64,000 nucleotides of DNA. Source: Chelativorans intermedius. Lineage in GTDB: Bacteria; Pseudomonadota; Alphaproteobacteria; Rhizobiales; Rhizobiaceae. How positions within the stretch are numbered: the first letter of the stretch is position 1; every line of letters starts with the position of its first letter. The notes under the pieces were generated by a model, which saw only the letters and a program-made list of their open reading frames with translations, made no database searches and was not told the DNA's origin. Shown here piece by piece: positions 28,303-42,005 of the stretch. The stretch is from positions 62,001 to 126,000 of the forward strand of contig NZ_JAODNW010000014.1 in assembly GCF_025398255.1 (NCBI RefSeq). The letters run 5' to 3'. The position numbers were made by a program, and so were the translations under genes.

Positions 28303-28348
28303 GTTTCCTCTTTCGGACGACGTGCAGGGTTTCAAGCTAGCACAAAGA

Positions 28349-28362
28349 TTGAACCGGTTCAA
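28349..28362. promoter_or_regulatory. Predicted LacI-family operator O1
   Basis: A perfect 14-bp palindrome TTGAACCGGTTCAA with a central CG, 46 bp upstream of the lacI-family start and just upstream of a predicted rightward -35. It is identical to O3 and one base different from O2. Confidence 0.85.
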
Positions 28363-28369
28363 ATTTTGC

Positions 28370-28399
28370 TTGACGAGCGTTTCTGGAAGGATGTACATT
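28370..28399 (+). promoter_or_regulatory. Predicted sigma-70 promoter for the DUF1127 gene
   Basis: TTGACG (28370-28375), an 18-bp spacer and TACATT (28394-28399) form a reasonable -35/-10 pair pointing to the gene at 28499. Operators O1 and O2 bracket it, with O2 beginning one base after the -10, where a bound repressor would block transcription. Confidence 0.65.
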
Positions 28400-28400
28400 A

Positions 28401-28414
28401 TTGAACCGGTCCAA
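28401..28414. promoter_or_regulatory. Predicted LacI-family operator O2
   Basis: TTGAACCGGTCCAA, one mismatch from the O1/O3 palindrome, placed across the expected transcription start of the rightward promoter. Centre-to-centre distance to O1 is 52 bp. Confidence 0.82.
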
Positions 28415-28433
28415 GTTTTGGACTAAATGGATT

Positions 28434-28447
28434 TTGAACCGGTTCAA
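28434..28447. promoter_or_regulatory. Predicted LacI-family operator O3
   Basis: A perfect TTGAACCGGTTCAA palindrome, 33 bp centre to centre from O2 and 51 bp before the DUF1127 start codon. Three sites in under 100 bp suggest cooperative binding or looping. Confidence 0.83.
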
Positions 28448-28498
28448 TAAGCGAGTTTGCGCTGAACGGAGCGCGACCGCCAGGGAAGGAGCGGCAAG

Positions 28499-28762
28499 AT
28501 GCCCACGACAGCCATTTCCGCACGATTCCAACAGAAACGCGTCAGGTACGACGTTCTGGGCACGCTGATGGCGGGCTGGCGCGCCATGCGGCTCCATCGC
28601 CAGGAACGCCGGGCAATCGTCGAAATCTCTCGTCTGGACCCACGCCTCATCCGCGACATGGGTTTCGACCCGGAGCAGATTTACGAGGCGCTGGACGGCA
28701 GTTGGGACGAGGTTGATCCCACCGGATTGGGAAGGCTCCTGCCAGGCGGCGAGCGTATTTGA
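28499..28762 (+). CDS. DUF1127 domain protein
   Basis: 87 residues with the arginine-rich DUF1127 (YjiS-like) motif RLDPRLIRDMGFD in the C-terminal half. Small DUF1127 proteins in alphaproteobacteria are implicated in RNA turnover and phosphate or stress responses. AAGGAG lies eight bases before the ATG. Control by the adjacent LacI-type repressor is predicted from three operators. A DUF1127 gene as the apparent sole target of a LacI regulator is unusual, since such repressors normally control transport or catabolic genes. Confidence 0.85.
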   Translation: MPTTAISARFQQKRVRYDVLGTLMAGWRAMRLHRQERRAIVEISRLDPRLIRDMGFDPEQIYEALDGSWDEVDPTGLGRLLPGGERI

Positions 28763-28777
28763 AGGCGGGCGGGTGGC

Positions 28778-29488
28778 TCACGGCGTGCGTCGCGCCAGGT
28801 CCTCCAGGTTCGCCGCTCTTTCCACCGTGGACGGGACGAGCAGGCTCATGCGTTCGCCCCAGCCGATGTCGCCGGGGGTGGGAAACACCGTCTTGCCGTC
28901 CTCCATGCGGGCCGCGCCGGAGGCGACGAGGGCCAGGGCGAGGGGATAGAGCTTGTGCTCCGCCTTCAGCACCCTTTCGGCAAGCCTTTCTTCGGTATCG
29001 TCGGCAAGGACCGGCACCGCCGCCTGGGCGACGATCGGCCCGCCATCGGTCTCCTCGGTCACGAAATGCACCGTGCAGCCGTGCACGCGCACCCCGGCCT
29101 GCAGCGCCTGGGCGTGTGGGGAAAGGCCCTTGAAGAGCGGCAGAAGCGAGGGGTGGATGTTGATCATCCGCCCTCTCCAGCGGCTCACGAACCCGGCGCT
29201 GAGCAGGCGCATGAAGCCGGCAAGGCAGACGAGTTCGGCCCCAAGCTCCTGCAGGGCCGCCTCGATGGCGGCCTCGTGGGCGGCCTTGTCGGCGTGCTCG
29301 TCGCGCGCCACGGCGCGTGCGGGAATGCCGGCGGCCCCGGCGGCGGCCAGGCCCGGCGCGTCCGCCCGGTCGCTGATGACCCCGGCGATCTCGGCCGGAT
29401 AGTCGCCCTCCGCCGCCGCGCGGATGAGCGCGCCCATGTTGCTTCCGCGGCCGGAGATCAGGATCGCCACCTTCTTCCTTGCCGTCAT
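28778..29488 (-). CDS. purN: Phosphoribosylglycinamide formyltransferase
   Basis: Transfers a formyl group from 10-formyl-THF to GAR in purine synthesis. The 236 residues include [12 protein letters not shown], the catalytic region [10 protein letters not shown]...[13 protein letters not shown], and [12 protein letters not shown] with the conserved Asp. The ATG at 29488 overlaps the purM stop (ATGA), so purM-purN is translationally coupled. The C-terminal tail past KTVFPTPGD is about 25 residues longer than in E. coli PurN. Confidence 0.97.
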
Positions 29489-30549
29489 AGGTCGAGTGCT
29501 CCCCGATAGATCACGCCATGCTGGCGGCGCGCCACGATGCCGCCCAATGTTTCCACGTGCTCGCCCGCCTGCTGCAGCACCGCTGCCACCTGCGCCGCCT
29601 GGCCGGCCGCCACCACGGCCACCATGCCGATGCCGCAGTTGAAGGTGCGCAGCATCTCCTGCGCCTGCACGCCGCCTTGCGCGGCCAGCCAGGAGAAGAC
29701 CGGCGGCACCTCGATGGCCGACAGGTCGATCTCCGCCGCATAGGCCGGTGGCAGCACGCGCGGCAGGTTCTCGGGAAAGCCGCCGCCGGTGATGTGCGCC
29801 AGCGCCTTGATGCCATGCGTGTTCCTGATGGCCGAAAGCACCGGCTTCACATAAATGCGCGTGGGCTCCAGAAGAGCCTCGGCCAGCGTTCTGCCGCTGT
29901 CGAAGGGGGCGGGGTCGTCCCAGCCCAGTCCGCTTGCCGCGACGATCTTGCGCACCAGCGAGAAGCCGTTGGAATGCACGCCGGAGGAGGCGATGCCAAG
30001 GATAACGTCGCCCTCCACGATGTCGTCCGTGGGAAGCAGCCGGCCGCGTTCCGCCGCGCCCACGGCAAAGCCGGCCAGGTCGTAGTCGCCCTCGGCATAC
30101 ATGCCCGGCATCTCGGCCGTCTCGCCGCCGATGAGCGCGCAGCCGGCCTGCCGGCAGCCCTCGGCGATGCCGGCGATGACGGCCGCACCCTGCTCGGGAT
30201 CGAGCCTGCCGGTCGCGAAATAATCGAGGAAGAACAGCGGCTCCGCCCCCTGCACCACGAGGTCGTTCACGCACATGGCGACAAGGTCCACGCCCACCGT
30301 GCCATGCCGACCCGATTCGATGGCCACCTTCAGCTTGGTGCCCACCCCGTCATTGGCCGCCACCAGCACGGGATCGGCAAATCCTGCGGCCTTGAGGTCG
30401 AACAGGCCGCCGAAACCGCCGATCTCGCCGTCTGCGCCCGGCCGGCGCGTCGCGCGCACCAGCGGCTTGATCTTCTCCACCAGCGCATTGCCCGCGTCGA
30501 TGTCCACGCCGGCATCGGCATAGGAGAGCCCGTTCTTCTTCCCGCTCAT
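29485..30549 (-). CDS. purM: Phosphoribosylformylglycinamidine cyclo-ligase
   Basis: AIR synthetase of the purine pathway, 354 residues. The conserved N-terminal block ([20 protein letters not shown]), the ATP-binding signature [12 protein letters not shown] and the [18 protein letters not shown] segment are all present, along with [11 protein letters not shown]. It precedes purN with a 4-bp overlap and is divergent from the CDP-alcohol phosphatidyltransferase gene across 173 bp. Confidence 0.98.
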
Positions 30550-30722
30550 CCAGACTGTCCCTTCCTGGCAGGTTTCCCGGCTATTGGCACGAAGCAGGCC
30601 GTGATCGCAAGCGGCCCGCGCCGGCGGTGGACCAAATCTTTTCCCTTGAAGCGGAAAGGGCGACCCGCCATCTATCAGGCCTTTGAGGCAGGTTCCGCGC
30701 CGCAGGCAGGGAGACGAAAGGC

Positions 30723-31286
30723 GTGACCATCCCCAACATCATCACACTGTTCCGGTTTCTGCTCGTGCCGGCGGTGGTGTTCGCGCTCATCACGCAGGAG
30801 GTGGACTGGGCCTTCGCGGGCTTCCTGGCTGCCGGCGTGTCCGACGCCGTCGACGGTTTCATCGCCCGCCAGTTCGACCAGCGCAGCGAACTCGGCGCCT
30901 ATCTCGATCCCATCGCCGACAAGCTGCTTCTCGTCAGCGTCTTCGTGGTTCTGGGCTATATGGGGCATCTGCCGCTCTGGCTGGTGGTGGCCGCCGTCTC
31001 GCGCGATGCGCTGATCGTCGGCGGCGTGGTCCTGTCCACGGTCATGGGCAATCCCGTGCCCATGAAGCCGCTTCTCGTCTCCAAGGCCAACACGCTGGTG
31101 CAGATCCTGCTTGCCGCGCTCGTGCTGGCCAGCCTTGCCCTGTCCTTCACGCCTGGCATCGTTTATAGCGGCCTGGTGTATCTGTCGGGCCTCTTGACCG
31201 TGGCTTCCGGTGCGGCCTATCTCGTCTCCTGGATCAAGCACATGGGCGGCTATGTCGATACCGGCACCCCACAAGGACGCGACTGA
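30723..31286 (+). CDS. CDP-alcohol phosphatidyltransferase family protein
   Basis: Membrane enzyme of the same superfamily as PgsA, here 187 residues. The motif is [10 protein letters not shown] followed by [11 protein letters not shown], and there are about five hydrophobic helices. It starts at GTG 30723, nine bases after the final AGG of GGGAGACGAAAGG. Since a canonical pgsA is present at 19292-19900, this second copy may be a cardiolipin synthase (Cls-II type) or a paralogue. It overlaps the AI-2E-family permease gene by 35 bp and leads into hdaA, a conserved alphaproteobacterial order. Confidence 0.88.
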
Positions 31287-32394
31287 CCGGGCGCCGGCGC
31301 GCAACGGGCTGGCGCGTCAGATTGCCTTCTGGCTTGCCGCGGCGGGCGGCCTCGTCCTGTTTCTCTATGTGTTCAGCTCCATCCTGCTGCCCTTCCTGGC
31401 CGGCATGGTGCTCGCCTATTTCCTCGATCCGGTGGCCGACCGGCTGCAGCGGCTGGGTCTCGGCCGGCTGGCCGCCACCATCGTCATCCTGGTTGCCTTC
31501 GTGATCGCGCTCGTCCTGGCGCTCATGCTCGTCATCCCGGTGCTCAGCAACCAGCTTGTCGAGTTCGCAGCCCGCCTGCCGGACTATCTCTCCCGCCTGC
31601 AGGCGCTCATCTCCCGTCTCGATCCGGGCTGGTTCGAGGCGGCGGTGGGCGTCAACCAGCAGACCCTGCAGGAGGGGTTGAACTCTCTCCTTACCCAGGG
31701 CACCGGCTTCGTCGCCACCCTTTTCCGCTCGCTGTGGAGCTCCGGGCTGGCGCTGGTCAATCTCGTCAGCCTGTTCGTGGTCACCCCGGTCGTCGCCTTC
31801 TACATGCTGCTCGACTGGGACCGGATGATCGACAAGGTGGATGGATGGATCCCGCGCGACCATCTGGAAACGGTGCGCCAGATCGCCCGCGACATCGACA
31901 CGGCGGTGGCCGGCTTCGTGCGCGGGCAGGGCACGCTGTGCCTCATCCTCGGCATTTTCTACGCCGCGGGCCTGACGGCCGTGGGGCTCAATTTCGGCCT
32001 GCTCATCGGCCTGTTCGCCGGGCTCATCAGCTTCATCCCCTATGTCGGCTCGCTGCTGGGGCTCGCCCTTTCGGTGGGCGTTGCCGTGGTGCAGTTCTGG
32101 CCGGAGTGGTACTGGGTGGCCGCCGTGGCGGTGATCTTCTTCGTCGGACAGTTCATCGAGGGGAATATCCTCCATCCGCTTCTCATGGGCCGCAGCGTCG
32201 GCCTGCATCCGGTGTGGCTGATGTTCTCGCTTTTCGCCTTCAGCTATCTGTTCGGTTTCGTAGGGCTTCTGATTGCCGTGCCGGCGGCGGCGGCGATCGC
32301 CGTCCTGGTACGCTTCGCCCTGGCCCGCTACCTCGCCTCGCCCCTTTATGGCGCGCAGGAGAGAGACGGCAGCGACGCGGCAGGCCGGCGATGA
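31252..32394 (+). CDS. AI-2E family transporter (PerM/UPF0118)
   Basis: Polytopic membrane protein of 380 residues with about eight hydrophobic segments and the family hallmark FIPYVGSLLGLALSV toward the C-terminal half. Family members include the TqsA AI-2 exporter and Na+/H+ antiporter-like proteins, so the substrate here is open. The start chosen is the ATG at 31252, inside the upstream gene; an earlier in-frame ATG at 31210 is possible. Its stop overlaps the hdaA start (ATGA). Confidence 0.88.
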   Translation: MSIPAPHKDATDRAPARNGLARQIAFWLAAAGGLVLFLYVFSSILLPFLAGMVLAYFLDPVADRLQRLGLGRLAATIVILVAFVIALVLALMLVIPVLSNQLVEFAARLPDYLSRLQALISRLDPGWFEAAVGVNQQTLQEGLNSLLTQGTGFVATLFRSLWSSGLALVNLVSLFVVTPVVAFYMLLDWDRMIDKVDGWIPRDHLETVRQIARDIDTAVAGFVRGQGTLCLILGIFYAAGLTAVGLNFGLLIGLFAGLISFIPYVGSLLGLALSVGVAVVQFWPEWYWVAAVAVIFFVGQFIEGNILHPLLMGRSVGLHPVWLMFSLFAFSYLFGFVGLLIAVPAAAAIAVLVRFALARYLASPLYGAQERDGSDAAGRR

Positions 32395-33071
32395 CGAAGG
32401 GGCGTCCGCGGCAATTGCCGCTCGAGCTGGCGCATGAGGAAGCGCGCTCGCGCGACGATCTGGTGGTCACGCCGGCCAATGCGCGCGCTGTCGCATTGGT
32501 GGAGGGCTGGCCCGATTGGCCGTCGCCCGTTGTGGTGCTGGCAGGGCCGGCCGGCGCCGGCAAGTCGCATCTGGGCGCCATCTGGTGCGCGCGCGCCGAC
32601 GCGCTGGCGGTTCCCGCCGGCCATGTCGGTGCCGATGCGTTTGCCGCTGCCGAGCGTGGCCCGGTGCTGATCGACGACGCCGATGCGCCTGGGCGCGACG
32701 AGCGGGGGCTTTTCCACCTCATCAACACGGCAAGGAGTGCAGGCCATCACCTGCTTCTCACCGCCCGGCGCTTTCCCGCCGCCTGGGGCGTGGCGCTGCC
32801 CGATCTCCTGTCGCGGCTGAAGGCGGCCGCGCTGGTGGAGATCGGCGAGCCCGACGACATGCTGCTGTCGGGCGTCATCTTCAAGCTCTTTGCCGACCGC
32901 CAGGTGGCGGTGGAGCCGCATGTGGTGCAGTTCCTGGTGCGCCGGATCGAGCGCTCGCTTTCGGCGGCACAGCAGGTGGTGGAGCGTCTCGACCGCGCCG
33001 CGCTGGAGCGCAAGGCGCGCATCACGCGCGCCCTGGCGGCGGAGGTGATCGGCGCCATGGAGGCGGGCTGA
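32391..33071 (+). CDS. hdaA: DnaA-related regulator HdaA/Hda-like
   Basis: AAA+ protein of 226 residues homologous to the ATPase core of DnaA but lacking the DNA-binding domain IV. In Caulobacter, HdaA acts with the sliding clamp to inactivate DnaA-ATP. Visible features are an N-terminal QLPLELAH that fits a beta-clamp-binding motif (consensus QL.LxL), a Walker A GPAGAGKSHL, and a Walker B VLIDDADAPG. The C-terminal lid has the SLSAAQQVVERLD helix. The coupled position downstream of the AI-2E-type permease is typical in alphaproteobacteria. Confidence 0.92.
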   Translation: MTKGRPRQLPLELAHEEARSRDDLVVTPANARAVALVEGWPDWPSPVVVLAGPAGAGKSHLGAIWCARADALAVPAGHVGADAFAAAERGPVLIDDADAPGRDERGLFHLINTARSAGHHLLLTARRFPAAWGVALPDLLSRLKAAALVEIGEPDDMLLSGVIFKLFADRQVAVEPHVVQFLVRRIERSLSAAQQVVERLDRAALERKARITRALAAEVIGAMEAG

Positions 33072-33161
33072 GCTCCTTTGGGGGCAGGGCGCCCGTGCGG
33101 CAAGAAAGCCGCAGCCGGGGCTTGCCCCGCCGATCGGGACGCTATAGGGAATTTTGCGCCG

Positions 33162-33238
33162 CGGAGCGTAGCGCAGCCTGGTAGCGCATCTGCTTTGGGA
33201 GCAGAGGGTCGCAGGTTCGAATCCTGCCGCTCCGACCA
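33162..33238 (+). tRNA. tRNA-Pro(TGG)
   Basis: 77-nt cloverleaf with acceptor stem CGGAGCG/CGCTCCG, anticodon stem TCTGC/GCAGA around loop TTTGGGA (anticodon TGG), T-arm GCAGGTTCGAATCCTGC, and an encoded CCA end. It is intact. Confidence 0.97.
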
Positions 33239-33298
33239 GCGCCTCCCGGGCCGGAAGGGCCGGGATGGGAAGACGTCAACAGTGTGAGGGTGGCCCAA

Positions 33299-33604
33299 GT
33301 GTCCGCGCGCATCTACAGCCCGTCCAGAACAGCCATGCAGTCCGGCACCGCCAAGACCGGCAAGTGGGTGCTGGAGTTCGAGCCCGAATCGCCGCGCCGC
33401 ATCGACCCGCTGATGGGCTACACCAGCACCACCGATGCCAGAAGCCAGATCCGCCTGACCTTTCCCACCAAGGAGGAGGCGGTGGCCTATGCCCGGCGGC
33501 ACGGCATCCCCTATCAGGTCGAGGAAGCCAAGCGGGCAAAGCGGCGCCAGGTTTCCTATGCGGACAATTTCCGCTATGACCGCAAAATTCCGTGGACGCA
33601 CTGA
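33299..33604 (+). CDS. NDUFS4-like ETC complex I accessory subunit
   Basis: 101-residue protein of the ETC complex I subunit conserved-region family, the bacterial counterpart of mitochondrial NDUFS4 (18 kDa/AQDQ subunit). Features are RIYSPSRTAMQSG, the tryptophan-containing KTGKWVLEFEP, and GYTSTTDARSQIRLTFPTKEEAVAYA, ending in NFRYDRKIPWTH. Alphaproteobacterial complex I (shown in Paracoccus) contains this subunit although the gene lies outside the nuo operon. I take the GTG at 33299, five bases after GAGGGTGG; GTG codons at 33284 and 33290 are alternatives. Confidence 0.92.
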   Translation: MSARIYSPSRTAMQSGTAKTGKWVLEFEPESPRRIDPLMGYTSTTDARSQIRLTFPTKEEAVAYARRHGIPYQVEEAKRAKRRQVSYADNFRYDRKIPWTH

Positions 33605-33621
33605 AGCCCGCCACCCGCACC

Positions 33622-33660
33622 GGCCCCGTAGCTCAGCTGGATAGAGCACCGGCCTTCTAA
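33622..33660 (+). pseudogene. 5' half of a tRNA-Arg gene broken at the anticodon loop
   Basis: 39 nt reading as a tRNA acceptor 5' strand, D-arm and anticodon 5' stem, then loop CTTCTAA. It matches the intact tRNA-Arg at 33749 in all but 4 positions. After the loop the expected stem complement (GCCGG) and the T-arm are missing; GTGGCGG and unrelated DNA follow. A break exactly in the anticodon loop is the signature of tyrosine-integrase insertion or its later decay. Confidence 0.85.
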
Positions 33661-33748
33661 GTGGCGGCTTTCGATGGGAAAAGCGGTGGAGGATTAGTAA
33701 CTTAGGTCTTGCTGCAATGCGGTAGAACCGTGTAGCGAACCGTGTTGA

Positions 33749-33825
33749 GGCCCCGTAGCTCAACTGGATAGAGCAGTGGACTTCTAATCCACAGGTTGCG
33801 TGTTCGAGTCACGCCGGGGTCGCCA
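33749..33825 (+). tRNA. tRNA-Arg(TCT)
   Basis: 77-nt complete cloverleaf: acceptor GGCCCCG/CGGGGTC (one G-T pair), anticodon stem GTGGA/TCCAC around CTTCTAA (anticodon TCT), T-arm GCGTGTTCGAGTCACGC and encoded CCA. The last base of CCA is immediately followed by the stop codon of the convergent PLD-like gene, with no spacer. It probably supplies the arginine AGA-reading function lost in the broken copy 89 bp upstream. Confidence 0.95.
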
Positions 33826-34575
33826 TCAAAACTTCGTAGCTGAGGCCCAAGTTTTATTGAATGCAGTTTCAGTAGCAGCCTTTATATCAGGACCGAGCGT
33901 CACCAGGAACGATTGCTTTTTTGCAAAGCCGTTTAGGCTAGTACCCATAAGCAGCATTCCATCTTCATGAAGAATATATCGATCGTGGAGCCCGCCGTTG
34001 GGCGCCACCCTTACCTCAAGCGGTTTTGTGTGCTCCTTTTGATAAGCTGCTAAGTCGCGCCGGAATTTTGTCTCCTTTAGGACATTGACCGTAAGCAGCT
34101 TTATCGATGAAGACGCAGTGCACTCTGCGATGAAGTCAAGCGTCTTGTTCTCAATGTACGGATCACAAATTTTCAAATCACCCTTCAGCGAAGCTAAAAC
34201 CTCCTCCATTCGCCGAATCTGAGACAGCGCTTGTTCAGGATCGACATAGACGGAGGACAAAGAAGCAGGTGCAACTTCTTCAAGTCCTTGCTTCATAATT
34301 CTGTAGTGGATACGGCCTTGGTAACGCTTCTTGGCAACTGTGCCTCGTTCCTTTTGTAAGATACCTGCGGCTCGCTGACGGGGAACGTGAATAGCTTCTC
34401 CGTCGCAGAGAACGTCCGCTACCTGGGATGGAGTCATATAAGCGAGTTCAGGGTCTTCGCGAACAGCTGCTAAGACCCACAATACGCGCAATCGATCATC
34501 AGCAAGACCATGGGGATCACCCAGAGCTGGGTCGCGAGCAGTAAGAAACCGAGCGACATGTGCTTTCGGAGTCAT
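33826..34575 (-). CDS. PLD-like (single HKD-type motif) protein with N-terminal helical domain
   Basis: 249 residues, not recognised as a named protein. Residues ~1-100 look like a helical DNA-binding region (YMTPSQVADVLCDGEAIHVP). The C-terminal domain resembles the phospholipase D superfamily: ICDPYIENKTLDFI at 136-149 and a single degenerate HKD-type motif, HDRYILHED at 197-205 then GTSLN at 211-215 (His-x-Arg instead of His-x-Lys). Single-motif PLD nucleases such as BfiI or Nuc form their active site as dimers. It overlaps the upstream winged-helix gene by 4 bp (ATGA). Base composition is less GC-rich than flanking core genes. A role in nucleic-acid targeting is inference. Confidence 0.7.
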   Translation of the reverse strand: MTPKAHVARFLTARDPALGDPHGLADDRLRVLWVLAAVREDPELAYMTPSQVADVLCDGEAIHVPRQRAAGILQKERGTVAKKRYQGRIHYRIMKQGLEEVAPASLSSVYVDPEQALSQIRRMEEVLASLKGDLKICDPYIENKTLDFIAECTASSSIKLLTVNVLKETKFRRDLAAYQKEHTKPLEVRVAPNGGLHDRYILHEDGMLLMGTSLNGFAKKQSFLVTLGPDIKAATETAFNKTWASATKF

Positions 34576-35189
34576 TCAGCAGCCTCTCCGACTGCTGGTG
34601 CGCTATTTGTCTTGCGGGACCTTTTTCGGGGAGTTGGCTGGGAAGTGGCTTTCTTAATCTCGCCTGAGAACTTATTCTCAATAGCGGTTCGCCCTTTCTG
34701 CGTGACATAAAACGATCCCGCAGACTTGAGATCCTCTGCGATCCATCCGTTCCTTACTGCCCAACTGAAGTCCCTCGGGAAATTGGCTGGCGCTGCCTCA
34801 CCCGCCACGCGAAACCGTCCCTTAATGTCATCTCGCGTGAACAGGTCAATGCTGTCGTGGACGTAAAGGTATTCGGCTATGGCTACGATCTTGTCCGGAT
34901 TGCGTTGGGCCTGCGCGTCATCAAGAAACTCACGCAACGATACACGGCGACCAGGGGAGACAGAGGGGCCAGGAGAGCCTAATGGGCCGGATGAGCGTTC
35001 TTCAGCAGAAACGCGGTTACTGGATACCGGGTGCTCTTGGCGCGGTACATTCTCATACGTACTCCCACCACCACCCAATATGATGTTGATGAGTTGCCGC
35101 GCAGTTTGACTGGAAACGCTCTTCTCAATCGAAATGCCATCACCCTTTATTGTGATGGCAAAAGTTTCTTTGGGTTCGCTTTCTTCCAC
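34572..35189 (-). CDS. Winged-helix-like protein, operon partner of the PLD-like protein
   Basis: 205 residues from a GTG at 35189, with AAGGAG seven bases upstream. Three parts are visible. Residues 9-40 form a strand-strand-helix unit (FAITIKGDGISIEKSVS). Residues 41-82 are a Ser/Pro/Gly-rich linker. Residues 83-170 form a winged-helix-like domain (IVAIAEYLYVHDSIDLFTRD, then NFPRDFSWAVRNGWI and GSFYVTQKG). The tail is basic (PRKRSRKT). The last domain resembles C-terminal modules found in mobile-element and defence-associated proteins, but I cannot name a family. Coupled to the PLD-like gene, it may be its regulatory or target-sensing partner. Confidence 0.65.
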   Translation of the reverse strand: MEESEPKETFAITIKGDGISIEKSVSSQTARQLINIILGGGGSTYENVPRQEHPVSSNRVSAEERSSGPLGSPGPSVSPGRRVSLREFLDDAQAQRNPDKIVAIAEYLYVHDSIDLFTRDDIKGRFRVAGEAAPANFPRDFSWAVRNGWIAEDLKSAGSFYVTQKGRTAIENKFSGEIKKATSQPTPRKRSRKTNSAPAVGEAAE

Positions 35190-35698
35190 AGCATCGCTCC
35201 TTCAACTGCAAGTTCATCTATGTAACTTGAAAAAGCTCCCTGTGCAAGAATTATGTATTGGTGTGTATGGACAGGTCTCAATGTCGGTTTCTTATGTATT
35301 TCGTCCGTCATGTAAGGCATTGAAAAGCAAAGCAATTATCGCATCGAAACAGAATTCTACTGGTATTGGACTAGGATGATACATATGGAATGAAGTGAAG
35401 CGCATTGCTCGTGCCGTGTGTGCGTAAGGGCGAATCAGAAAACTGTAGACGAGCGCCGGGAATACGGCTTAGTGTCAATCTGCTCGGGACAGCATGACCA
35501 ACGACGGTGCAGTCCGGGACCGAGCCGGCGGGCGACACGCCAAGCCCCTTAAATCGCTTTTCAGGCCGCTTGGTCGGCCGCGTGGACCCAGCGAGCCGAC
35601 GGAATAAGCCACAGAAAATCCACACTGTGCGCTGGCCGTCGGCATTTACTATGGACATTGCCATCCGGTCAGCGCCTTCCGCGAAAGGAGGCGCAGAC
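35190..35698. other. Intergenic region of the accessory segment (no supported gene)
   Basis: 509 bp. The left part (to about 35400) is A/T-rich and should hold the promoter of the leftward two-gene operon; on the minus strand TTGAGA followed by TACATAAT near 35235-35265 is a possible but weak -35/-10. The right part is GC-rich again and ends with AAAGGAGG serving the gene at 35699. Short ORFs across it have no ribosome site or recognisable features. Confidence 0.45.
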
Positions 35699-35980
35699 AT
35701 GCGCATTTGCTATTCTACCGATGAAGACCCCGAACTGTTCGAGCCCGATTGGGATGTCATCGCGAATGATCTTCGGAATGCGGCGGAGTACCTCTCTGAT
35801 TGCGATGACGAGCATGGGATGCTGGGACTCTTCGCAATCGATTTGCTACAGGCAGCCTACTTTACGCCCGCCCTTTCTACCGAGGAACGAGCCAGGCGAA
35901 TGCTCTGCCACATTCGGTGGATCACGAGCTATCTCTCAGGCTCTTCACTTCCAAAGGCAATCATGAGTCACGTGGCCTGA
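35699..35980 (+). CDS. Small acidic protein of unknown function
   Basis: 93 residues from the ATG at 35699, preceded at eight bases by a textbook AAAGGAGG, which decides the start over an upstream ATG at 35651. The N-terminal half is acidic (CYSTDEDPELFEPDWDVI) and the rest is predicted helical. No family is recognised. It lies in the accessory segment between the PLD-like operon and two small genes on the opposite strand. Confidence 0.6.
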   Translation: MRICYSTDEDPELFEPDWDVIANDLRNAAEYLSDCDDEHGMLGLFAIDLLQAAYFTPALSTEERARRMLCHIRWITSYLSGSSLPKAIMSHVA

Positions 35981-36034
35981 AGCAGCACCTGCTGCTGGTC
36001 AATGCGGCGCTGCTCTGACAGCTTTAGCTCCCGC

Positions 36035-36349
36035 TCAGTCATCGCCCTCGTCCAATTCCTGGAGCCGGGCCCGCAACGCCGCACGCTCCTGGTACCGATC
36101 AAGGAACCGCTCGGCGTAGGCGGCGGGGTTTACGCCCTCTGGCCACTCGTCGGGGAAGATCACCGACTGGCCGTCTTCGCCTAAGCGGACCCGGCTCCGG
36201 TCCCGCACGAGCCATGCCTGGGCCCGGAGGGCGTCCAGAAATTCGGGGTCACGAAGAAGCAACTGACGATGGGCCGCAAGCTGGCCTTCCATCCGGGCCC
36301 TCTCCTCGCGAAGCCGCTGCATTTCGCGCGTGTCGTGGTCGTACGTCAT
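36035..36349 (-). CDS. Small charged protein of unknown function, second of a coupled pair
   Basis: 104 residues, rich in Arg/Glu/Leu at both ends (MQRLREERARMEGQLAAH; RYQERAALRARLQELDE), suggesting two coiled-coil helices around a central segment with FPDEWPEGVNPAAY. The start codon shares a base with the stop of the upstream gene (TGATG), so the pair is translationally coupled. I recognise no family; the size and coupling would fit a prophage remnant or a small regulatory module. Confidence 0.6.
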   Translation of the reverse strand: MTYDHDTREMQRLREERARMEGQLAAHRQLLLRDPEFLDALRAQAWLVRDRSRVRLGEDGQSVIFPDEWPEGVNPAAYAERFLDRYQERAALRARLQELDEGDD

Positions 36350-36603
36350 CACCGGATCTCCTTCAGCCCCTTCACGGCCCGGCCGACGTGGGCTCCCGTG
36401 CCATTGCGGTAGCGGGCTAATTCGCCCGTGCGCAGGACGATCTTTCCCCCGGCCTGCTCCACAGCCGCAATCACGTTCTGCAGCGCCTGCAACTGCTCGA
36501 AATCCTGCGCCGCGACGACCCTGGCCGCCTCGTTGCGGGCAAGCGCCACCTGCTCCTCCGTAAGCCCGGAAAGGAAGGCGGGAGCAGACAGGATCGCGTG
36601 CAT
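36349..36603 (-). CDS. Small helical protein of unknown function, first of a coupled pair
   Basis: 84 residues from the ATG at 36603, with GGAAGG six bases upstream; a longer frame to 36735 runs into the metC-like gene and is not used. Sequence is helical and Ala/Gln/Glu-rich (FLSGLTEEQVALARNEAAR...QDFEQLQALQNVI) with a basic C-terminus (HVGRAVKGLKEIR). It reminds me of small structural proteins in phage clusters, but this is weak. Direct repeats CCGGAGA(C/G)AT at 36613 and 36638 lie just upstream. Confidence 0.6.
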   Translation of the reverse strand: MHAILSAPAFLSGLTEEQVALARNEAARVVAAQDFEQLQALQNVIAAVEQAGGKIVLRTGELARYRNGTGAHVGRAVKGLKEIR

Positions 36604-36728
36604 GGTCGCCTTCCGGAGACATAGGTTACGGTTTATACCGGAGAGATGGTTGACACATTCTCCGGCGCGAATGGGCTTGCGCGTGGTTCGGGCCCTTGCC
36701 TTTTTCTCGGCAAGACCTGCCGCGCCAT

Positions 36729-37898
36729 TCAGCAAGTGCGGGCGGCGTTCAGACCCTTCTCGATGTCCGCCTTCAGGTCGTCCACGTCTTCAAGACCGAT
36801 TTGCAGCCGGATGACCGGCCCGGCATAGGGGCCCGTGGCGATCGTCCGGTCGCCGAGGAAGACATGGACGGCGAGGCTTTCATAGCCGCCCCAGGAATAG
36901 CCGAGGCCGAAGATTTCCAGCGCGTCGAGGAAGGCGTGAGCCGCCGGCTCGCCCCCGCCGTCGAGCACGATGGAGAAAATGCCGCTGGCGCCGGAGAAAT
37001 CGCGCTTCCAGATGGCATGGCCGGGGTGCGATTCGAGCGCCGGGTGGAGAACCTGCGCCACGCCGGGTTGTCCTTCCAGCCAGCGGGCGATCTCAAGCGC
37101 ACTTTCCTGGTGGCGTGCCAGCCGCACGCCCATGGTGCGCAGCCCCCTGAGCACCTGGTAGACATCGTCCGGCCCCGCGCACGCGCCAAGCGTGAGAAAG
37201 GTGTCGTAGAGCCGCTCGAAGCAGGCATCGTTGGCCGAGACCGTTCCCAGCAGCAGGTCGGAATGGCCGGCCGGATATTTCGTCGCCGCGTGGATGGAAA
37301 TGTCGACCCCGTGGTCGAGCGGGCGGAAGTACAGCGGCGTCGCCCAGGTGTTGTCCATCATCACCACCGCGCCGCCCTCGTGGGCGGCGGCGGCAATGGC
37401 CGGAATGTCCTGCATCTCGAAAGTGTTGGAGCCGGGCGATTCGGTGAACACCACCTTCGTGTTGGGCTTCATCAGCCCGGTGATCTGCGCCCCGGCCAGC
37501 GGGTCGTAATATTGGACGTCCACCCCCAGCCGCTTCAGCATGGTGTCGGCAAAGCGGCGCGTCGGATGGTAGACCGAATCGACGATCAGCACATGATCGC
37601 CGGCCGACAGGAAGGCCAGAAGCGGCACGCACACGGCGGCAAGCCCGGAAGGCACGATGATCGTGCCGGCCGCCCCCTCCAGTTCGTTCATCGCCGCAGC
37701 CAGCGCATCCGTGGTCGGCGTGCCGCGCGTGCCATAGGTGTATTTCTGGTTGCGCGCGGCCATGGTGGCGGCATCGGGAAACAGCACCGTGGAGGCATGC
37801 ACGACCGGCGGATTGACGAAGCCGAAGAAGTCGCGCGGGTCGTTTCCCATATGGGCAAGCCTGGTGTTGACGCCCGCTTTCTGCCGTTTCTGTCCCAT
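36729..37898 (-). CDS. metC: Cystathionine beta-lyase (PLP-dependent)
   Basis: Cys/Met-metabolism PLP enzyme of 389 residues, predicted to convert cystathionine to homocysteine, ammonia and pyruvate. The PLP lysine is in ATKYPAGHSDLLLG. The N-terminal NTRLAHMGNDP and YTYGTRGTPTTDALAAA blocks, and the later SWGGYESL, match the MetC/PatB-like branch. The start is the ATG at 37898. It is divergent from aapJ across 262 bp. Distinguishing it from a cystathionine gamma-lyase/synthase relies on these motifs and is likely but not certain. Confidence 0.88.
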   Translation of the reverse strand: MGQKRQKAGVNTRLAHMGNDPRDFFGFVNPPVVHASTVLFPDAATMAARNQKYTYGTRGTPTTDALAAAMNELEGAAGTIIVPSGLAAVCVPLLAFLSAGDHVLIVDSVYHPTRRFADTMLKRLGVDVQYYDPLAGAQITGLMKPNTKVVFTESPGSNTFEMQDIPAIAAAAHEGGAVVMMDNTWATPLYFRPLDHGVDISIHAATKYPAGHSDLLLGTVSANDACFERLYDTFLTLGACAGPDDVYQVLRGLRTMGVRLARHQESALEIARWLEGQPGVAQVLHPALESHPGHAIWKRDFSGASGIFSIVLDGGGEPAAHAFLDALEIFGLGYSWGGYESLAVHVFLGDRTIATGPYAGPVIRLQIGLEDVDDLKADIEKGLNAARTC

Positions 37899-38160
37899 CG
37901 CGTCATCCTCTTGCTTTGCCGTCCCGTGCCGGCGGGCACCCGCTCCCGCATAGAAGCTTCGCGTCGCATTCTCAACCCTGCCGGAGGGTGTGAACGGGGG
38001 CCATTCGCTCTTGACCAGCGCGGATTTATGGCATTCGATGGCGGCGTGCTTGGGAGAGGAAGCGTGCGCCCGAAGTCGTCCAGGCTGGCCGGCCAGCGTC
38101 TGCTTCCGCACAGAACCATTAGGGGATGAACCCTCAACGACAGAAAAAGGGTCAACAATC

Positions 38161-39180
38161 ATGAACAATCTCGTCAAGGCACTGCTCGGCTCGGTCGCGA
38201 TGGCCTTCGCTGCCGTTCCGGCCTCCGCAGCCACGCTCGATGATGTGAAGAGCGCGGGCCAGTTGCGCTGCGGTGTCAACACAGGCCTTCCCGGCTTCGC
38301 ATCGCAGAACGACCAGGGCGAATGGCAGGGCCTGGATGTCGACTACTGCAAGGCCGTGGCCGCGGCCGTCTTCGAGGGCGACGCCAGCAAGGTGCAGTAC
38401 GTGCCGCTCTCGGCGGTGCAGCGCTTCCCGGCCCTGCAGAACAACGAAGTCGACATGCTGGCGCGCAACACCACCTGGACGATGAACCGCGACACCGCGC
38501 TCGGCCTCAACTTCGTGGGTGTCAACTTCTATGACGGCCAGGGCTTCATGGTCCGCGAGGATCTGAACGTCACCTCCGCCCTGCAGCTTTCCGGCGCCAC
38601 CGTGTGCGTGCAGAGCGGCACGACGACCGAGCTCAACCTGACGGACTACTTCCGCGCCAACAACATGGAGTTCAACCCGGTCGTCATCGAGTCCCAGTCG
38701 GATGTCAACGCCGCCTACGAGCAGGGCCGTTGTGACGTGCTGACGACGGATTCCTCCGGCCTTTACGCCACGCGCCTGGAGCTTGCCAACCCGGAGGAGC
38801 ATGTGGTGCTCCCCGAGATCATCTCCAAGGAGCCGCTGGGTCCGGTGGTCCGCCAGGGTGACGAACAGTGGTTCGACATCGTCAAGTGGGTGCATTTCGG
38901 CCTGCTCAACGCCGAGGAGCTGGGCATTACCCAGGACAATGTCGACGAGATGTTGAACTCCGACAATCCGAACATCCGCCGGCTCTTGGGCGTCGACGGT
39001 TCGTTCGGACAGGATATCGGCCTGACCAACGACTGGATGGTCCATGTCATCAAGGCGGTCGGCAACTATGGCGAGATCTTCGATCGCAATGTCGGCCCCG
39101 ATACGCCGCTTCGCATCCAGCGCGGCATGAACGAATTGTGGACCAAGGGCGGTCTGCAATACGCTCCGCCGATCCGCTGA
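38161..39180 (+). CDS. aapJ: General L-amino acid ABC transporter, periplasmic binding protein AapJ
   Basis: Solute-binding component of the broad-range Aap amino acid importer, well studied in rhizobia. The 339-residue protein has a signal peptide (ending AVPASA), then a type-3 solute-binding fold with QLRCGVNTGLPGFA and the DMLARNTTWTMNRDT block typical of AapJ. It heads aapJQMP. A strong stem-loop follows the stop, probably protecting the aapJ message so that the binding protein is made in excess over the permeases. Confidence 0.96.
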   Translation: MNNLVKALLGSVAMAFAAVPASAATLDDVKSAGQLRCGVNTGLPGFASQNDQGEWQGLDVDYCKAVAAAVFEGDASKVQYVPLSAVQRFPALQNNEVDMLARNTTWTMNRDTALGLNFVGVNFYDGQGFMVREDLNVTSALQLSGATVCVQSGTTTELNLTDYFRANNMEFNPVVIESQSDVNAAYEQGRCDVLTTDSSGLYATRLELANPEEHVVLPEIISKEPLGPVVRQGDEQWFDIVKWVHFGLLNAEELGITQDNVDEMLNSDNPNIRRLLGVDGSFGQDIGLTNDWMVHVIKAVGNYGEIFDRNVGPDTPLRIQRGMNELWTKGGLQYAPPIR

Positions 39181-39191
39181 TCGCTTGAGCC

Positions 39192-39217
39192 GGCGCCGCG
39201 CGCGCAGACGCGGCGCC
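39192..39217 (+). promoter_or_regulatory. Intercistronic stem-loop between aapJ and aapQ
   Basis: A perfect 9-bp GC-only stem (GGCGCCGCG/CGCGGCGCC) with an 8-base loop, 11 bp after the aapJ stop and without a T tract. It is best read as an mRNA-stabilising or attenuating hairpin, not a full terminator. Confidence 0.7.
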
Positions 39218-39278
39218 GCCCGCTTGGACCCGGGCGAGCGCGAGGGCCACACCGGCTGCCGTGCGTTCGCCGCTGCGC

Positions 39279-40475
39279 ATGGCGGATCAAATGACGGCTG
39301 ACATTCAAAGCGTTTCCGAGCCGCGCGTGTCGCTCATGCGCGACCCGCGCACGCGCGGTCTGATCATTCAGATCGTGATGATCATTGCCATCCTGGCCTT
39401 CGCCGCATGGCTGGTCAACAACACGGTGCGCAACCTGGCCCAGGCCAACATCGCCTCCGGCTTCGGCTTCCTGTCGACGCGCGCCGGCTTCGACATTGGC
39501 CAGGTGCCGATCGACTACACGGCGAACTCGAGCTATGGCCGGGCGCTGCTGGTTGGCATCACCAACACGATCATCGTGGCGGGTGCCGGCATCACGCTCG
39601 CCACCATCGTGGGCTTCATCATCGGCATCGGGCGGCTGTCGCGCAACTATCTGGTGCGCGGACTCAGCACCATCTATGTCGAGGTCTTCCGCAACATCCC
39701 GCCGCTGCTCGTGATCCTGTTCTGGTATTTCGGCGTGCTGGCGGTGCTGCCTCTGCCGCGCCAGGCCATCGAGCTGCCGTTCGGTTCCTATCTGTCGAAT
39801 CGCGGGCTGCAGACGCCGGCTGCCCTGTTCGAGCCATCGGCCCTCTTCACTTTCCTGGCCATTGTGGCCGGCATTGCCGGAACGCTCGTGCTTGCGCGGG
39901 TCAACAGGCGGCACCAGATGCGCACCGGCGAGCAGCGCTCCACCCTCTGGCCTGGGCTCGGGCTGATCGTCGGGCTGCCGCTCGTCATTTTCGCGCTGTC
40001 GGGCTTTCCCGTCTCTTTCGAGTATCCCGAGGCCACGCGCTTCAACCTTGTCGGCGGCTGGAACGTGCAGCCGGAGTTTCTGGCGCTGTTTCTGGCGCTT
40101 TCCTTCTACACCGCATCCTTCATTGCCGAGATCGTGCGCGCCGGCATTCTCGCCGTCTCTTGGGGGCAGACGGAGGCGGCTTCCGCACTCGGGCTGACGC
40201 GCAGTCAGGCGCTGCGGCTGGTCATCGTGCCGCAAGCCTTTCGCGTCATCATCCCGCCGCTCACAAGCCAGTATCTCAACCTGACGAAGAACACCTCGCT
40301 GGGGCTGGCCGTGGGCTACCCGGAGCTTGTCGCCGTGGGGTCCACGGTGCTCAACCAGACCGGCCAGTCGGTGGAGGTCGTGGCGGTCTGGATGGTCGTC
40401 TATCTGGGCCTCAGCCTGGCCACCTCGGCCTTCATGAATTGGTTCAACGCGCGCATGGCGCTGGTGGAGCGATAG
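39279..40475 (+). CDS. aapQ: General L-amino acid ABC transporter permease AapQ
   Basis: First membrane permease of the Aap system, 398 residues from the ATG at 39279 (a GTG at 39261 and an ATG at 39291 are alternatives). It has about eight membrane segments. The cytoplasmic EAA loop contacting AapP is in TEAASALGLTRSQALRLVIVPQAFR. YVEVFRNIPPLLVILFWY is characteristic of the HisM/GlnP class. It is followed by aapM after a 9-bp gap containing GGAGG. Confidence 0.95.
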   Translation: MADQMTADIQSVSEPRVSLMRDPRTRGLIIQIVMIIAILAFAAWLVNNTVRNLAQANIASGFGFLSTRAGFDIGQVPIDYTANSSYGRALLVGITNTIIVAGAGITLATIVGFIIGIGRLSRNYLVRGLSTIYVEVFRNIPPLLVILFWYFGVLAVLPLPRQAIELPFGSYLSNRGLQTPAALFEPSALFTFLAIVAGIAGTLVLARVNRRHQMRTGEQRSTLWPGLGLIVGLPLVIFALSGFPVSFEYPEATRFNLVGGWNVQPEFLALFLALSFYTASFIAEIVRAGILAVSWGQTEAASALGLTRSQALRLVIVPQAFRVIIPPLTSQYLNLTKNTSLGLAVGYPELVAVGSTVLNQTGQSVEVVAVWMVVYLGLSLATSAFMNWFNARMALVER

Positions 40476-40484
40476 GAGGCGGCG

Positions 40485-41975
40485 ATGAAGGAGCATATGA
40501 CTGCCTATGTCGCCAGCGAGCAGAAGCCGGCCCTGCCGCCGCCGCCCAGCGAGGTCGGCCTTTGGGGCATCCTGCGCAGGAACCTGTTCGCCACCCCGTT
40601 CGATTCCATGTTGACGGTGGTGCTGGGCCTGTTTTCCCTCTGGGCAGCCTGGAACATCTTCCAGTGGGCCTTCCTCTCGGCGGTCTTTTCCGGCGAGAAC
40701 CGCGAGGCGTGCCTGGCGCAGGAAGGGCAGGCGGTGGGTGCCTGCTGGGCGTTCGTGCACGCCAAGTTCGGCCAGTTCGTCTACGGGCTCTACCCGGTGG
40801 CCGAGCGCTGGCGCGTGGATGTGGTGATCGCGCTTCTGGTGGCGCTCGCGCTGCCGCTGGCGATTCCCGCAGCCCCCTTCAAGCGGCTCAATGCCCTGGC
40901 GCTTCTGGGCGCCTTTCCCTTCGTGGCGCTCGTGCTTCTGACGGGCGGGCATTTCACGGTCAGCGGCGGCTGGGTGGCCTTCCTGTTCGCCTCGGCGAGC
41001 CTCGTGGCCGCCGCCCTTGCAGCCGGTCAGGTCGCCGTGTCGCAGCGGCTGGTGCGCTGGGCAACGTGGCTCGCCTTGGCGGCGTTTGCCGTTCTCGTCC
41101 TCTCCAACCTCGTCTCCAGCGGGCAGGTGAGGATCATGGTCTTCCGCTTCTCCGGCCTGTCCCTTGTCGCGCTTCTGGTCGCACTCGCCTCGGTGGCGGC
41201 AAGCGCGCTGTCCACGCGCGCCGGCGGGGGGCGGGGAAACCTGATGGCCGTGCTTGCCGCGCCGCTGGCTGTTCTGGCCCTCATCGTCCTGCTTGCCGGC
41301 GATTTCGGCCTCCAGCCGGTGCCCACCAATCTTTGGGGCGGTCTTCTGGTCACGCTGGTCGTCGCCCTCATCGGCATTGCCGCCTCGCTGCCGCTCGGCA
41401 TCCTGCTTGCGCTGGGGCGGCGTTCGCACCTGCCGGCGGTGAGGCTGTTCTCCATCATCTTCATCGAGTTCTGGCGCGGCGTGCCGCTGATCACCGTCCT
41501 GTTCATGTCGGCTTTCATGATTCCGCTGTTTCTGCCCGACGGTGTCACCTTCAATCAGCTCCTGCGGGCGCTCATCGGCGTCGCGCTGTTCTCCGCCGCC
41601 TACATGGCGGAGGTGGTGCGCGGCGGCCTGCAGGCGATCCCCAAGGGGCAGTATGAAGGCGCGATGGCGCTGGGCCTCGGCTATTGGCAGATGATGCGGC
41701 TCGTCATCATGCCGCAGGCGCTCAAGCTGGTGATTCCGGGCATCGTCAACACCTTCATCGGCCTGTTCAAGGACACGAGCCTGGTCTACATCATCGGCCT
41801 TGCCGATCTTTTGGGCACGGTGCGGCGCGGCTTTTCCGATCCCAACTGGATCACGCCGACCACGGCGGCCACGGGGCTTGTCTTTGCCGCCTTCGTCTAC
41901 TGGCTCTTCTGCTTCGGCATGTCGCGCTATTCCATCTATACCGAACGCCGGCTTCACACCGGTCACGAACGATAA
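40485..41975 (+). CDS. aapM: General L-amino acid ABC transporter permease AapM, with membrane insertion
   Basis: Second permease of the Aap system. The C-terminal half is standard (GGLLVTLVVALIGIAASLPLGI..., IEFWRGVPLITVLFM, and the EAA loop around YEGAMALGLGYWQMMRLVIMP). At 496 residues it is much longer than the ~385 usual for AapM. Extra sequence of roughly 115 residues with three or four hydrophobic segments lies between LLTGGHF (about residue 157) and the DFGLQPV...WGGLLVTL region (about 273), where normal AapM has only a short link. The reading frame and base composition show no break, so the insertion looks genuine. Confidence 0.94.
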   Translation: MKEHMTAYVASEQKPALPPPPSEVGLWGILRRNLFATPFDSMLTVVLGLFSLWAAWNIFQWAFLSAVFSGENREACLAQEGQAVGACWAFVHAKFGQFVYGLYPVAERWRVDVVIALLVALALPLAIPAAPFKRLNALALLGAFPFVALVLLTGGHFTVSGGWVAFLFASASLVAAALAAGQVAVSQRLVRWATWLALAAFAVLVLSNLVSSGQVRIMVFRFSGLSLVALLVALASVAASALSTRAGGGRGNLMAVLAAPLAVLALIVLLAGDFGLQPVPTNLWGGLLVTLVVALIGIAASLPLGILLALGRRSHLPAVRLFSIIFIEFWRGVPLITVLFMSAFMIPLFLPDGVTFNQLLRALIGVALFSAAYMAEVVRGGLQAIPKGQYEGAMALGLGYWQMMRLVIMPQALKLVIPGIVNTFIGLFKDTSLVYIIGLADLLGTVRRGFSDPNWITPTTAATGLVFAAFVYWLFCFGMSRYSIYTERRLHTGHER

Positions 41976-42005
41976 CCGGCCAACGGCCGCTCAAGGGGAA
42001 AGAAG

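What the first reader, a model, noticed from the sequence alone, without database searches (positions are those of the whole stretch)
33826..35189. Two-gene winged-helix + PLD-like operon as a candidate undescribed system
Sequence shows a minus-strand pair with a 4-bp ATGA overlap and its own ribosome site, in visibly less GC-rich DNA, next to a disrupted tRNA gene. One protein has a strand-helix N-terminus, a Pro/Ser linker, a winged-helix-like domain and a basic tail. The other has an N-terminal helical region and a single HKD-like motif (His197-x-Arg199, Glu204/Asp205, then GTSLN). Established: single-HKD PLD nucleases work as dimers, and some defence nucleases use PLD domains (BfiI). Inference: a sensor/nuclease module in a small mobile segment, possibly anti-phage. 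Lys-to-Arg in the motif could mean altered chemistry or loss of catalysis.
Basis: partly seen in the sequence, partly recalled or inferred. Interest (0 to 1): 0.75.

Follow-up and report, generated by a model that had tools for sequence, protein, structure and literature searches.

The report
Two-gene PLD-effector pair on tRNA island
Two small overlapping bacterial genes, carried on foreign DNA lodged in a tRNA gene, look like a DNA-binding helper plus a nuclease-fold effector of the kind found in anti-virus defence, but their function has not been tested.

Summary
In detail: two overlapping minus-strand genes (ORF1 34572-35189, ORF2 33826-34575) lie in low-GC DNA of about 3.1 kb, inserted in the anticodon loop of tRNA-Arg. 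All 15 same-genus genomes compared keep that tRNA whole, and the spacing to the next conserved gene varies widely.

ORF2's C-terminal half is a PLD fold (AlphaFold/Foldseek). Its H-D-R motif is kept in 16 of 16 family sequences aligned, so the Lys-to-Arg change is a family trait, not decay. Relatives match PADLOC's candidate PDC-S05; one overlaps a PDC-S19 gene; four lie on viral contigs. ORF1 is a confident winged helix behind a small strand-strand-helix domain and a disordered linker.

I found the exact pair in no other genome. ORF1's winged helix is related, weakly but above shuffled controls, to proteins in operons of like plan whose effector is HEPN-like. I favour a compact adaptor-plus-effector conflict module with exchangeable effectors.

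Against it: ORF1's closest relatives are single genes beside eno; ORF2's winged helix is unproven; its top Foldseek hit is the archaeal DNA-binding protein TrmBL2; three other ORFs of the insert match nothing in PADLOC. Catalysis and anti-phage action are inference.

The parts
34572..35189 (-). ORF1, 205 aa: small strand-strand-helix N-terminal domain (aa 9-37), Pro/Ser-rich disordered linker (40-79), winged-helix domain (about 85-175), basic disordered tail; proposed DNA-binding adaptor/sensor
   Evidence: relatives
33826..34575 (-). ORF2, 249 aa: N-terminal half likely winged helix (by eye; low-confidence model), C-terminal PLD fold with H197-D-R199 motif; proposed effector
34572..34575 (-). 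4-bp ATGA overlap of the two genes (suggests translational coupling)
33622..33660 (+). 5' half of the native tRNA-Arg, cut at the anticodon loop (left junction of the insertion)
33749..33825 (+). intact tRNA-Arg (TCT); 33749-33826 is 100% identical to the tRNA at the same locus of same-genus genome G008; no second copy among the own-genome matches listed (E up to 0.001)
33661..36750 (.). variable insert (about 3.1 kb) between the tRNA-Arg 5' half and the point where homology to relatives resumes; right edge approximate (36611-36679 also matches G005 and G014 just after their tRNA)
35507..35980 (+). other ORF of the insert, 157 aa, no Pfam, PHROG or PADLOC match
36035..36352 (-). small ORF of the insert (105 aa), no PHROG or PADLOC match
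36349..36600 (-). small ORF of the insert (83 aa), only a marginal PHROG match (E 0.029) to a family of unknown function

Best explanation
A compact, horizontally moved adaptor-plus-effector conflict module. Shown: an overlapping gene pair in foreign DNA inserted in a tRNA gene; by prediction ORF1 carries a winged helix and ORF2 a PLD fold. Inferred: ORF1 senses or marks invading nucleic acid through its winged helix and its small N-terminal domain, and docks ORF2. ORF2 dimerises through its PLD fold, so that two H-D-R half-sites form one active site (as recalled for single-motif PLD nucleases such as Nuc and BfiI), and cuts nucleic acid once recruited. The effector half is exchangeable: operons of like plan carry a HEPN-like domain instead. 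The likeliest role is defence against phage or plasmids.
For: Overlap, ribosome sites and shared alien composition. Insertion in the tRNA-Arg anticodon loop at a variable site: 15 of 15 same-genus genomes keep the tRNA; homology to the right flank resumes 0.1-13.5 kb after it in 9 and was not within the fetched stretch in 6. PLD fold: Foldseek hits PLD3, Zucchini, Nuc and NucT with E below 1e-3, BfiI at 1.1e-3. H-D-R with D138 and Y140 in 16 of 16 sequences. Defence-candidate links of the PLD half: PDC-S05 E 7.5e-8, NsnC 1.7e-4, VPA1262_N 1.1e-9 but below its cut-off; relative L015 overlaps a gene matching PDC-S19 (E 5e-145), L017 is a full PDC-S05 (E 3e-116); L065-L068 lie on viral contigs. 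Like-plan operons: ORF1 profile against the first protein of three 3-gene arrays, hhalign E 1.8e-5, 0 of 100 column shuffles reach it; against P0001 of plasmid pLM19O1, E 0.0022, 0 of 100. That plasmid's pair (204 + 250 aa, 1-bp overlap) ends in a HEPN-like domain related to that of the arrays (E 1.1e-15). The domain weakly matches the N-terminus of PD-T7-3 in L062, L063 and P0002 but not in L064; PD-T7-3 is reported to protect against phage (PMC9519451, passages read).
Against: The exact pair was seen in this genome alone: ORF2 search 0 of 60 relatives and, for the PLD half only, 6 of 397 others of the phylum; ORF1 no convincing match in 396 others of the order. ORF1's closest relatives are single genes beside eno, with no effector gene recognised next to them. 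The pair in G305/G415 lacks the PLD half, and its second protein is not demonstrably related to ORF2 (42 of 100 shuffles reach the score). ORF2's N-terminal half against the HEPN protein's N-terminus is only borderline (E 0.027, 0 of 100; E 0.22), and ORF1's winged helix shows no relation to it (78 of 100). ORF1's N-terminal domain is not shown to match that of P0001 (36 of 100) and only weakly that of the arrays' second protein (E 0.023, 1 of 100). Best Foldseek hit of ORF2 is TrmBL2, an archaeal DNA-binding protein, though at TM 0.39. The catalytic Lys is Arg throughout the aligned family and position +7 is Glu here. No PADLOC match for three other ORFs of the insert.
Confidence: 0.42

Rival explanations
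1. A TrmB-like DNA-binding regulator: ORF2 joins a winged helix to a catalytically silent PLD-fold domain that binds a ligand or packs DNA, and ORF1 is a second DNA-binding protein. The pair regulates island or host genes and cuts nothing.
For: TrmBL2 chains take the first seven Foldseek ranks for ORF2, TrmB a weaker one, and the MITD1 and FAM83 DUF1669 PLD-like domains also rank high. The canonical Lys is Arg in 16 of 16 aligned sequences. ORF1 looks like MarR and archaeal-virus winged helices.
Against: No Pfam match to any family, TrmB included, at E up to 1. H, D, R, D138 and Y140 are invariant in 16 of 16, which speaks for a working site. The TrmBL2 alignments have TM 0.35-0.39 and the ORF2 N-terminal model is low confidence.
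Confidence: 0.25
2. A toxin-antitoxin-like or abortive-infection pair: ORF2 is a toxic effector held in check by ORF1, which also represses the operon; loss of ORF1 during infection frees ORF2.
For: Overlapping pair with the putative regulator first; the like-plan pair on plasmid pLM19O1 sits near toxin-antitoxin and integrase genes; HEPN domains are common in abortive-infection systems (PMC3710099, passages).
Against: ORF1 relatives occur alone, unlike a dedicated antitoxin; PLD relatives occur without an ORF1-like neighbour in the loci checked; no toxicity data.
Confidence: 0.17
3. A modification-dependent (type IV) restriction enzyme: the winged helix reads methylated DNA and the PLD domain cuts it, as proposed for PLD-wH fusions.
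For: A published screen lists PLD-wH fusion endonucleases with Dam-dependent toxicity (PMC11037411, passages).
Against: Those are written PLD-wH (nuclease first), here the PLD half is last; the motifs given in the passages hold a Lys, here Arg; ORF2's winged helix is unproven; a second winged-helix gene is not mentioned in the passages read.
Confidence: 0.1
4. Neutral remnant cargo of a decayed integrated element, kept by chance.
For: No integrase recognised in the 3.1 kb and no repeat of the tRNA 3' end found at the right edge; few relatives.
Against: Both genes are open, well formed and overlapping; the family's motif residues are kept.
Confidence: 0.06

Closest known systems
PADLOC PDC-S05 (putative single-gene defence candidate; PLD domain behind an ORF6N-like N-terminus by my reading of L017, recalled and not tested)
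   Same: PLD half homologous (E 7.5e-8; relative L017 3e-116)
   Different: window ORF2 matches only profile positions 186-284 of 306 (or 172-273 of 285); its N-terminal half differs and it has a partner gene
VPA1262 family N-terminal domain (NCBIfam NF040700)
   Same: PLD-like stretch similar, E 1.1e-9
   Different: 37.5 bits against a cut-off of 80; only positions 342-465 of 478 are matched; the whole-family model has 1,026 positions
CoCoNuT CnuE effectors (PMC11090510, passages read)
   Same: a winged helix with an interchangeable C-terminal effector, HEPN or PLD
   Different: CnuE is encoded with a CnuH helicase and McrBC-type genes and has two PLD domains in Type III-C; by eye no such gene lies near the pair, and no homology was tested
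PLD-wH type IV restriction endonucleases (PMC11037411, passages read)
   Same: winged helix plus PLD nuclease
   Different: domain order reversed and Lys present in the motifs given; no partner gene described in the passages
Single-motif PLD nucleases Nuc, NucT, BfiI
   Same: fold (Foldseek E 1.9e-4, 3.2e-4, 1.1e-3)
   Different: they have H-x-K (recalled), here H-D-R; no activity known here
TrmB/TrmBL2 archaeal DNA-binding proteins
   Same: top structural matches; winged helix plus PLD-like domain (architecture partly recalled)
   Different: no Pfam sequence match; different lineage; low TM-score
PD-T7-3 (PMC9519451, passages read)
   Same: weak similarity of its N-terminal region to the HEPN-like domain of like-plan operons (E 1.2e-5 L062, 8.9e-5 L063, 1.2e-3 P0002; none for L064)
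   Different: no match to the window proteins themselves; a single 432-position profile

Membership tests
PDC-S05 | full-length match to a PDC-S05 profile, including the N-terminal part | tested here: not met
   only ORF2 residues 121-227 match (profile 186-284 of 306, 172-273 of 285); L017 shows a full match (8-291, E 3e-116)
VPA1262_N (NCBIfam) | score above the curated cut-off | tested here: not met
   37.5 bits against 80
PLD superfamily | PLD fold | tested here: met
   AlphaFold model, block pLDDT 71-87 from 131 to 249 with a dip to 55-65 at 211-230; Foldseek E 3e-7 to 1e-3 against PLD-fold chains
HKD PLD nucleases | H-x-K-x4-D motif | tested here: not met
   H197-D-R199, Glu at +7; 16 of 16 aligned sequences have H-D-R
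HKD PLD nucleases | metal-independent nuclease activity as a dimer | not testable with these tools
   needs protein
TrmB family | match to the family's sequence models | tested here: not met
   no Pfam match at E up to 1 for ORF2
CoCoNuT | McrBC-type GTPase and CnuH helicase genes alongside | tested here: not met
   none recognised by eye among ORFs of at least 80 aa in 28000-42000; no profile search was made
PLD-wH type IV restriction | PLD domain followed by a methyl-sensing winged helix | tested here: not met
   PLD is C-terminal
winged helix (ORF1) | winged-helix fold | tested here: met
   block pLDDT 83-95 for residues 81-170; Foldseek matches MarR, F93 and a pNOB8 protein at prob 0.97-1.00, but E no better than 8.7e-3
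winged helix (ORF2 N-terminal half) | winged-helix fold | tested here: inconclusive
   model pLDDT below 50 over most of 21-119; no family match
two-gene adaptor/effector module with HEPN-like relatives | first genes homologous | tested here: inconclusive
   hhalign E 1.8e-5 and 0.0022, 0 of 100 shuffles each; shuffling does not control for shared fold; six other in-session profiles gave E 0.059-0.78
two-gene adaptor/effector module with HEPN-like relatives | N-terminal halves of second genes homologous | tested here: inconclusive
   E 0.22; E 0.027 when cut to the N-terminal part, 0 of 100 shuffles
anti-phage defence system | protection against phage | not testable with these tools
   needs plaque assays
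tRNA-integrated genomic island | insertion at a tRNA with an intact site in relatives | tested here: met
   15 of 15 same-genus genomes intact, junction at 33660/33661
tRNA-integrated genomic island | integrase gene and flanking direct repeats | tested here: not met
   no integrase recognised in 33661-36750; no second attachment repeat found at the right edge

The most novel reading that the evidence does not exclude
A previously unnamed class of minimal conflict modules: a linker-bearing winged-helix adaptor gene overlapping or adjoining a winged-helix effector gene, with the effector domain exchanged between an H-D-R PLD fold (window), a HEPN-like RNase domain (pLM19O1, L062-L064) and possibly none (G305/G415), found on islands and plasmids, and with the H-D-R PLD fold using arginine in place of the catalytic lysine.
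Probability: 0.33. Interest if true: 0.68.

Novelty: new variant of a known kind. Interest (0 to 1): 0.45.

Why it matters
If true, it adds a very small adaptor-plus-effector module and links two unplaced sets of proteins: the H-D-R PLD fold that recurs in defence-candidate families, and winged-helix/HEPN-like operons whose first two proteins have no convincing PADLOC model. It also poses a sharp chemical question: whether a PLD fold with Arg in place of the catalytic Lys still cuts nucleic acid, as its conservation suggests, or has become a binding domain as in MITD1 or TrmB.

Tried and rejected
Lys-to-Arg as decay of this gene: rejected, since it is invariant in the aligned family. The canonical HKD protein L024 was aligned there but left out of the 16. 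The match in G120 was not counted, because my ORF picking did not recover it. A seventh third-position GC value was out of frame and is dropped. ORF1 matches in G585 and G763 were rejected: a stop inside the first, and the second lies in a long frame running antisense to another ORF. Of the 27 other genomes (of 368) with ORF1 matches at E up to 0.1 I followed only G305 and G415 in full; the loci of the rest were only re-scored with the ORF1 profile, where three kept a marginal score (L032 E 0.001, L031 0.19, L047 0.31).

A single-sequence scan of genome contigs with ORF2 and of viral contigs with ORF2 and ORF1 found no relative. Phages gave none for either, plasmids none for ORF1 and two Streptomyces records for ORF2; ORF2's N-terminal half alone gave only chance-level plasmid hits (E 3-9). 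Alignment scans A3, A4, A6 and A14 of viral contigs found none, nor did one with L012's protein. Proteins like the first one of the three-gene arrays were found in 2 of 111 genomes of the order searched, both already known, and on no plasmid. Relation of ORF2 to the 170-aa protein of G305/G415: not supported. Plasmid searches with two HEPN-like proteins listed 23 records besides pLM19O1; in the 8 that I read, and in L101, the domain starts a single gene of about 430-470 aa, not a pair. PADLOC scan of three other ORFs of the insert found nothing. Paper searches for PDC-S05, VPA1262, PD-T7-3 and winged helix/HEPN/PLD combinations listed no paper whose title or shown abstract describes such a pair; of the papers opened I read passages only, and most subscription papers are not in the library. 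The NsnC search showed five papers, none holding that name.

Full report
What is there. The window holds two minus-strand genes, ORF1 (34572-35189, 205 aa) and ORF2 (33826-34575, 249 aa), overlapping by ATGA. Their GC (0.51-0.53) and third-position GC (0.53 and 0.46) are well below those of the flanks. The own genome has one match to ORF2, the gene itself.

Setting. A DNA search with 33150-33825 matched all 15 other genomes of the genus that were searched, and the main match ended at 33660 or 33661 in each. That point is the end of CTTCTAA, the anticodon loop of tRNA-Arg(TCT). In 15 of 15 the tRNA continues unbroken. Homology to the right flank resumes at window 36742-36771. In relatives it begins 105, 107, 418, 817, 1823, 2360, 7747, 11242 and 13518 bases after the tRNA 5' half in nine genomes, and was not within the stretch fetched in six. 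The window therefore carries about 3.1 kb at a site of very variable content. In G012 a 371-aa ORF about 2.4 kb after the tRNA looks like an integrase by eye; this was not tested. I recognised no integrase in the window insert. The native tRNA is cut, and an intact tRNA-Arg at 33749-33825 stands beside it. That copy is 100% identical to the tRNA at the same locus of G008.

ORF2. No Pfam family matched. PADLOC PDC-S05 (E 7.5e-8) and NsnC (1.7e-4) and NCBIfam VPA1262_N (1.1e-9, below its cut-off) match only the C-terminal half. AlphaFold, with five sequences in the alignment, gives that half at block pLDDT 71-87 with a dip to 55-65 at 211-230, and the N-terminal half mostly below 50. Foldseek returns TrmBL2, MITD1, FAM83, PLD3, vaccinia F13, Zucchini, Nuc, NucT and BfiI. 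In an alignment of 16 family sequences (the window's included; one canonical HKD protein left out of the counts), H197, D198, R199, D138 and Y140 are kept in 16 of 16, S213 in 15 of 16, and the +7 residue is Asp in 11 of 16 (Glu here). The Arg is thus a family trait. Relatives are sparse: 6 of 397 other genomes of the phylum, 5 of 384 of the class with a profile, one of them the canonical protein, two Streptomyces plasmids and four viral contigs. Their settings fit conflict: L015 overlaps a gene matching PDC-S19 (E 5e-145), L017 is a full PDC-S05, and L065-L068 lie on viral contigs, L065 beside what look by eye like head genes. PDCs are unvalidated candidates (PMC12988326, passages).

ORF1. 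The winged helix (about 85-175) is modelled at high confidence; an N-terminal strand-strand-helix at moderate confidence and a disordered linker precede it. Foldseek ranks MarR and archaeal-virus winged helices first, none below E 1e-3. No convincing relative was found in 396 other genomes of the order. A wider search led to G305 and G415, one genus, where an ORF1-like gene of 247 or 254 aa is followed by a 170-aa gene. In both, the gene stands beside eno with no effector gene recognised. So ORF1 belongs to a broader family, and its nearest members are single genes at a shared locus, probably inherited vertically.

Like-plan operons. With five ORF1 sequences as a profile, 3 of 198 other genomes of the order matched at E up to 0.01. 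All three matches lie in three-gene arrays: a helical plus winged-helix-like protein, a protein with a strand-like N-terminus and linker, and a protein with an RN-x3-HP motif that I read as HEPN-like. The ORF1 profile against the first of these proteins gives hhalign E 1.8e-5; 0 of 100 column shuffles reach its score. A plasmid search with the HEPN-like protein found pLM19O1, where two genes (204 and 250 aa) overlap by 1 bp and have the same plan. Its first gene aligns with the ORF1 profile over the winged helix (E 0.0022, 0 of 100 shuffles), although plain BLASTP finds no similarity to the window protein, and its effector is clearly related to those of the three-gene arrays (E 1.1e-15). That effector type weakly matches the N-terminus of PD-T7-3 in L062, L063 and P0002, not in L064. 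PD-T7-3 is reported to protect E. coli, best against T-even phages (PMC9519451, passages).

Limits. The link between ORF1 and these proteins is weak and may partly be what any two winged helices share; shuffles do not exclude that, although six other in-session profiles gave E 0.059-0.78. ORF2's N-terminal half is not shown to be a winged helix: no relation to the second genes of G305/G415 (42 of 100 shuffles), none to ORF1's own winged helix (78 of 100), borderline to the HEPN proteins' N-terminus (0 of 100, E 0.027). The N-terminal domain of ORF1 is not shown to match that of P0001 (36 of 100), and matches that of the arrays' second protein only weakly (1 of 100). No experiment bears on function.

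Verdict. The best reading is a mobile adaptor-plus-effector pair of defence type whose effector is an H-D-R PLD fold. A TrmB-like regulator is the main rival. Interchange of HEPN and PLD behind a winged helix is known from CoCoNuT CnuE proteins (PMC11090510, passages), and HEPN and PLD domains also alternate behind AbiJ N-terminal domains (PMC3710099, passages). The idea is therefore a variant of a known kind, not a new category.

Noticed in passing
window 33622-33825: The native tRNA-Arg is cut and an intact tRNA-Arg(TCT), identical to that at the same locus of another species of the genus, sits 88 bp further on; the own-genome matches listed showed no other copy, so the insert may carry the only working gene.
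   Followed up: partly
L054 7392-8733 and L055 7573-8939 (G305, G415): Two species of one genus keep an ORF1-like gene followed by a 170-aa gene of unknown function in the same gene setting.
   Followed up: partly
L062, L063, L064: Three-gene arrays of two linker/winged-helix-like proteins and a protein with a C-terminal RN-x3-HP motif; the first two proteins have no convincing PADLOC or Pfam match and the third resembles PD-T7-3 weakly (L062, L063) or not at all (L064).
   Followed up: partly
L057/L058 and L059: An ORF1-like gene stands beside eno in two Rhodospirillales with no effector gene recognised, which suggests a chromosomal role unrelated to defence for part of the family.
   Followed up: partly
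L065 3932-4738: A gene with the helical plus H-D-R PLD plan lies opposite in strand to what look by eye like head genes of a viral contig, beside an HNH gene with weak PtuB matches: a moron-like position.
   Followed up: no
L101-L109 (plasmids): Proteins of about 430-470 aa that begin with the HEPN-like domain occur as single genes on diverse plasmids, several beside toxin-antitoxin or recombinase genes; their length recalls PD-T7-3, which was not tested.
   Followed up: no
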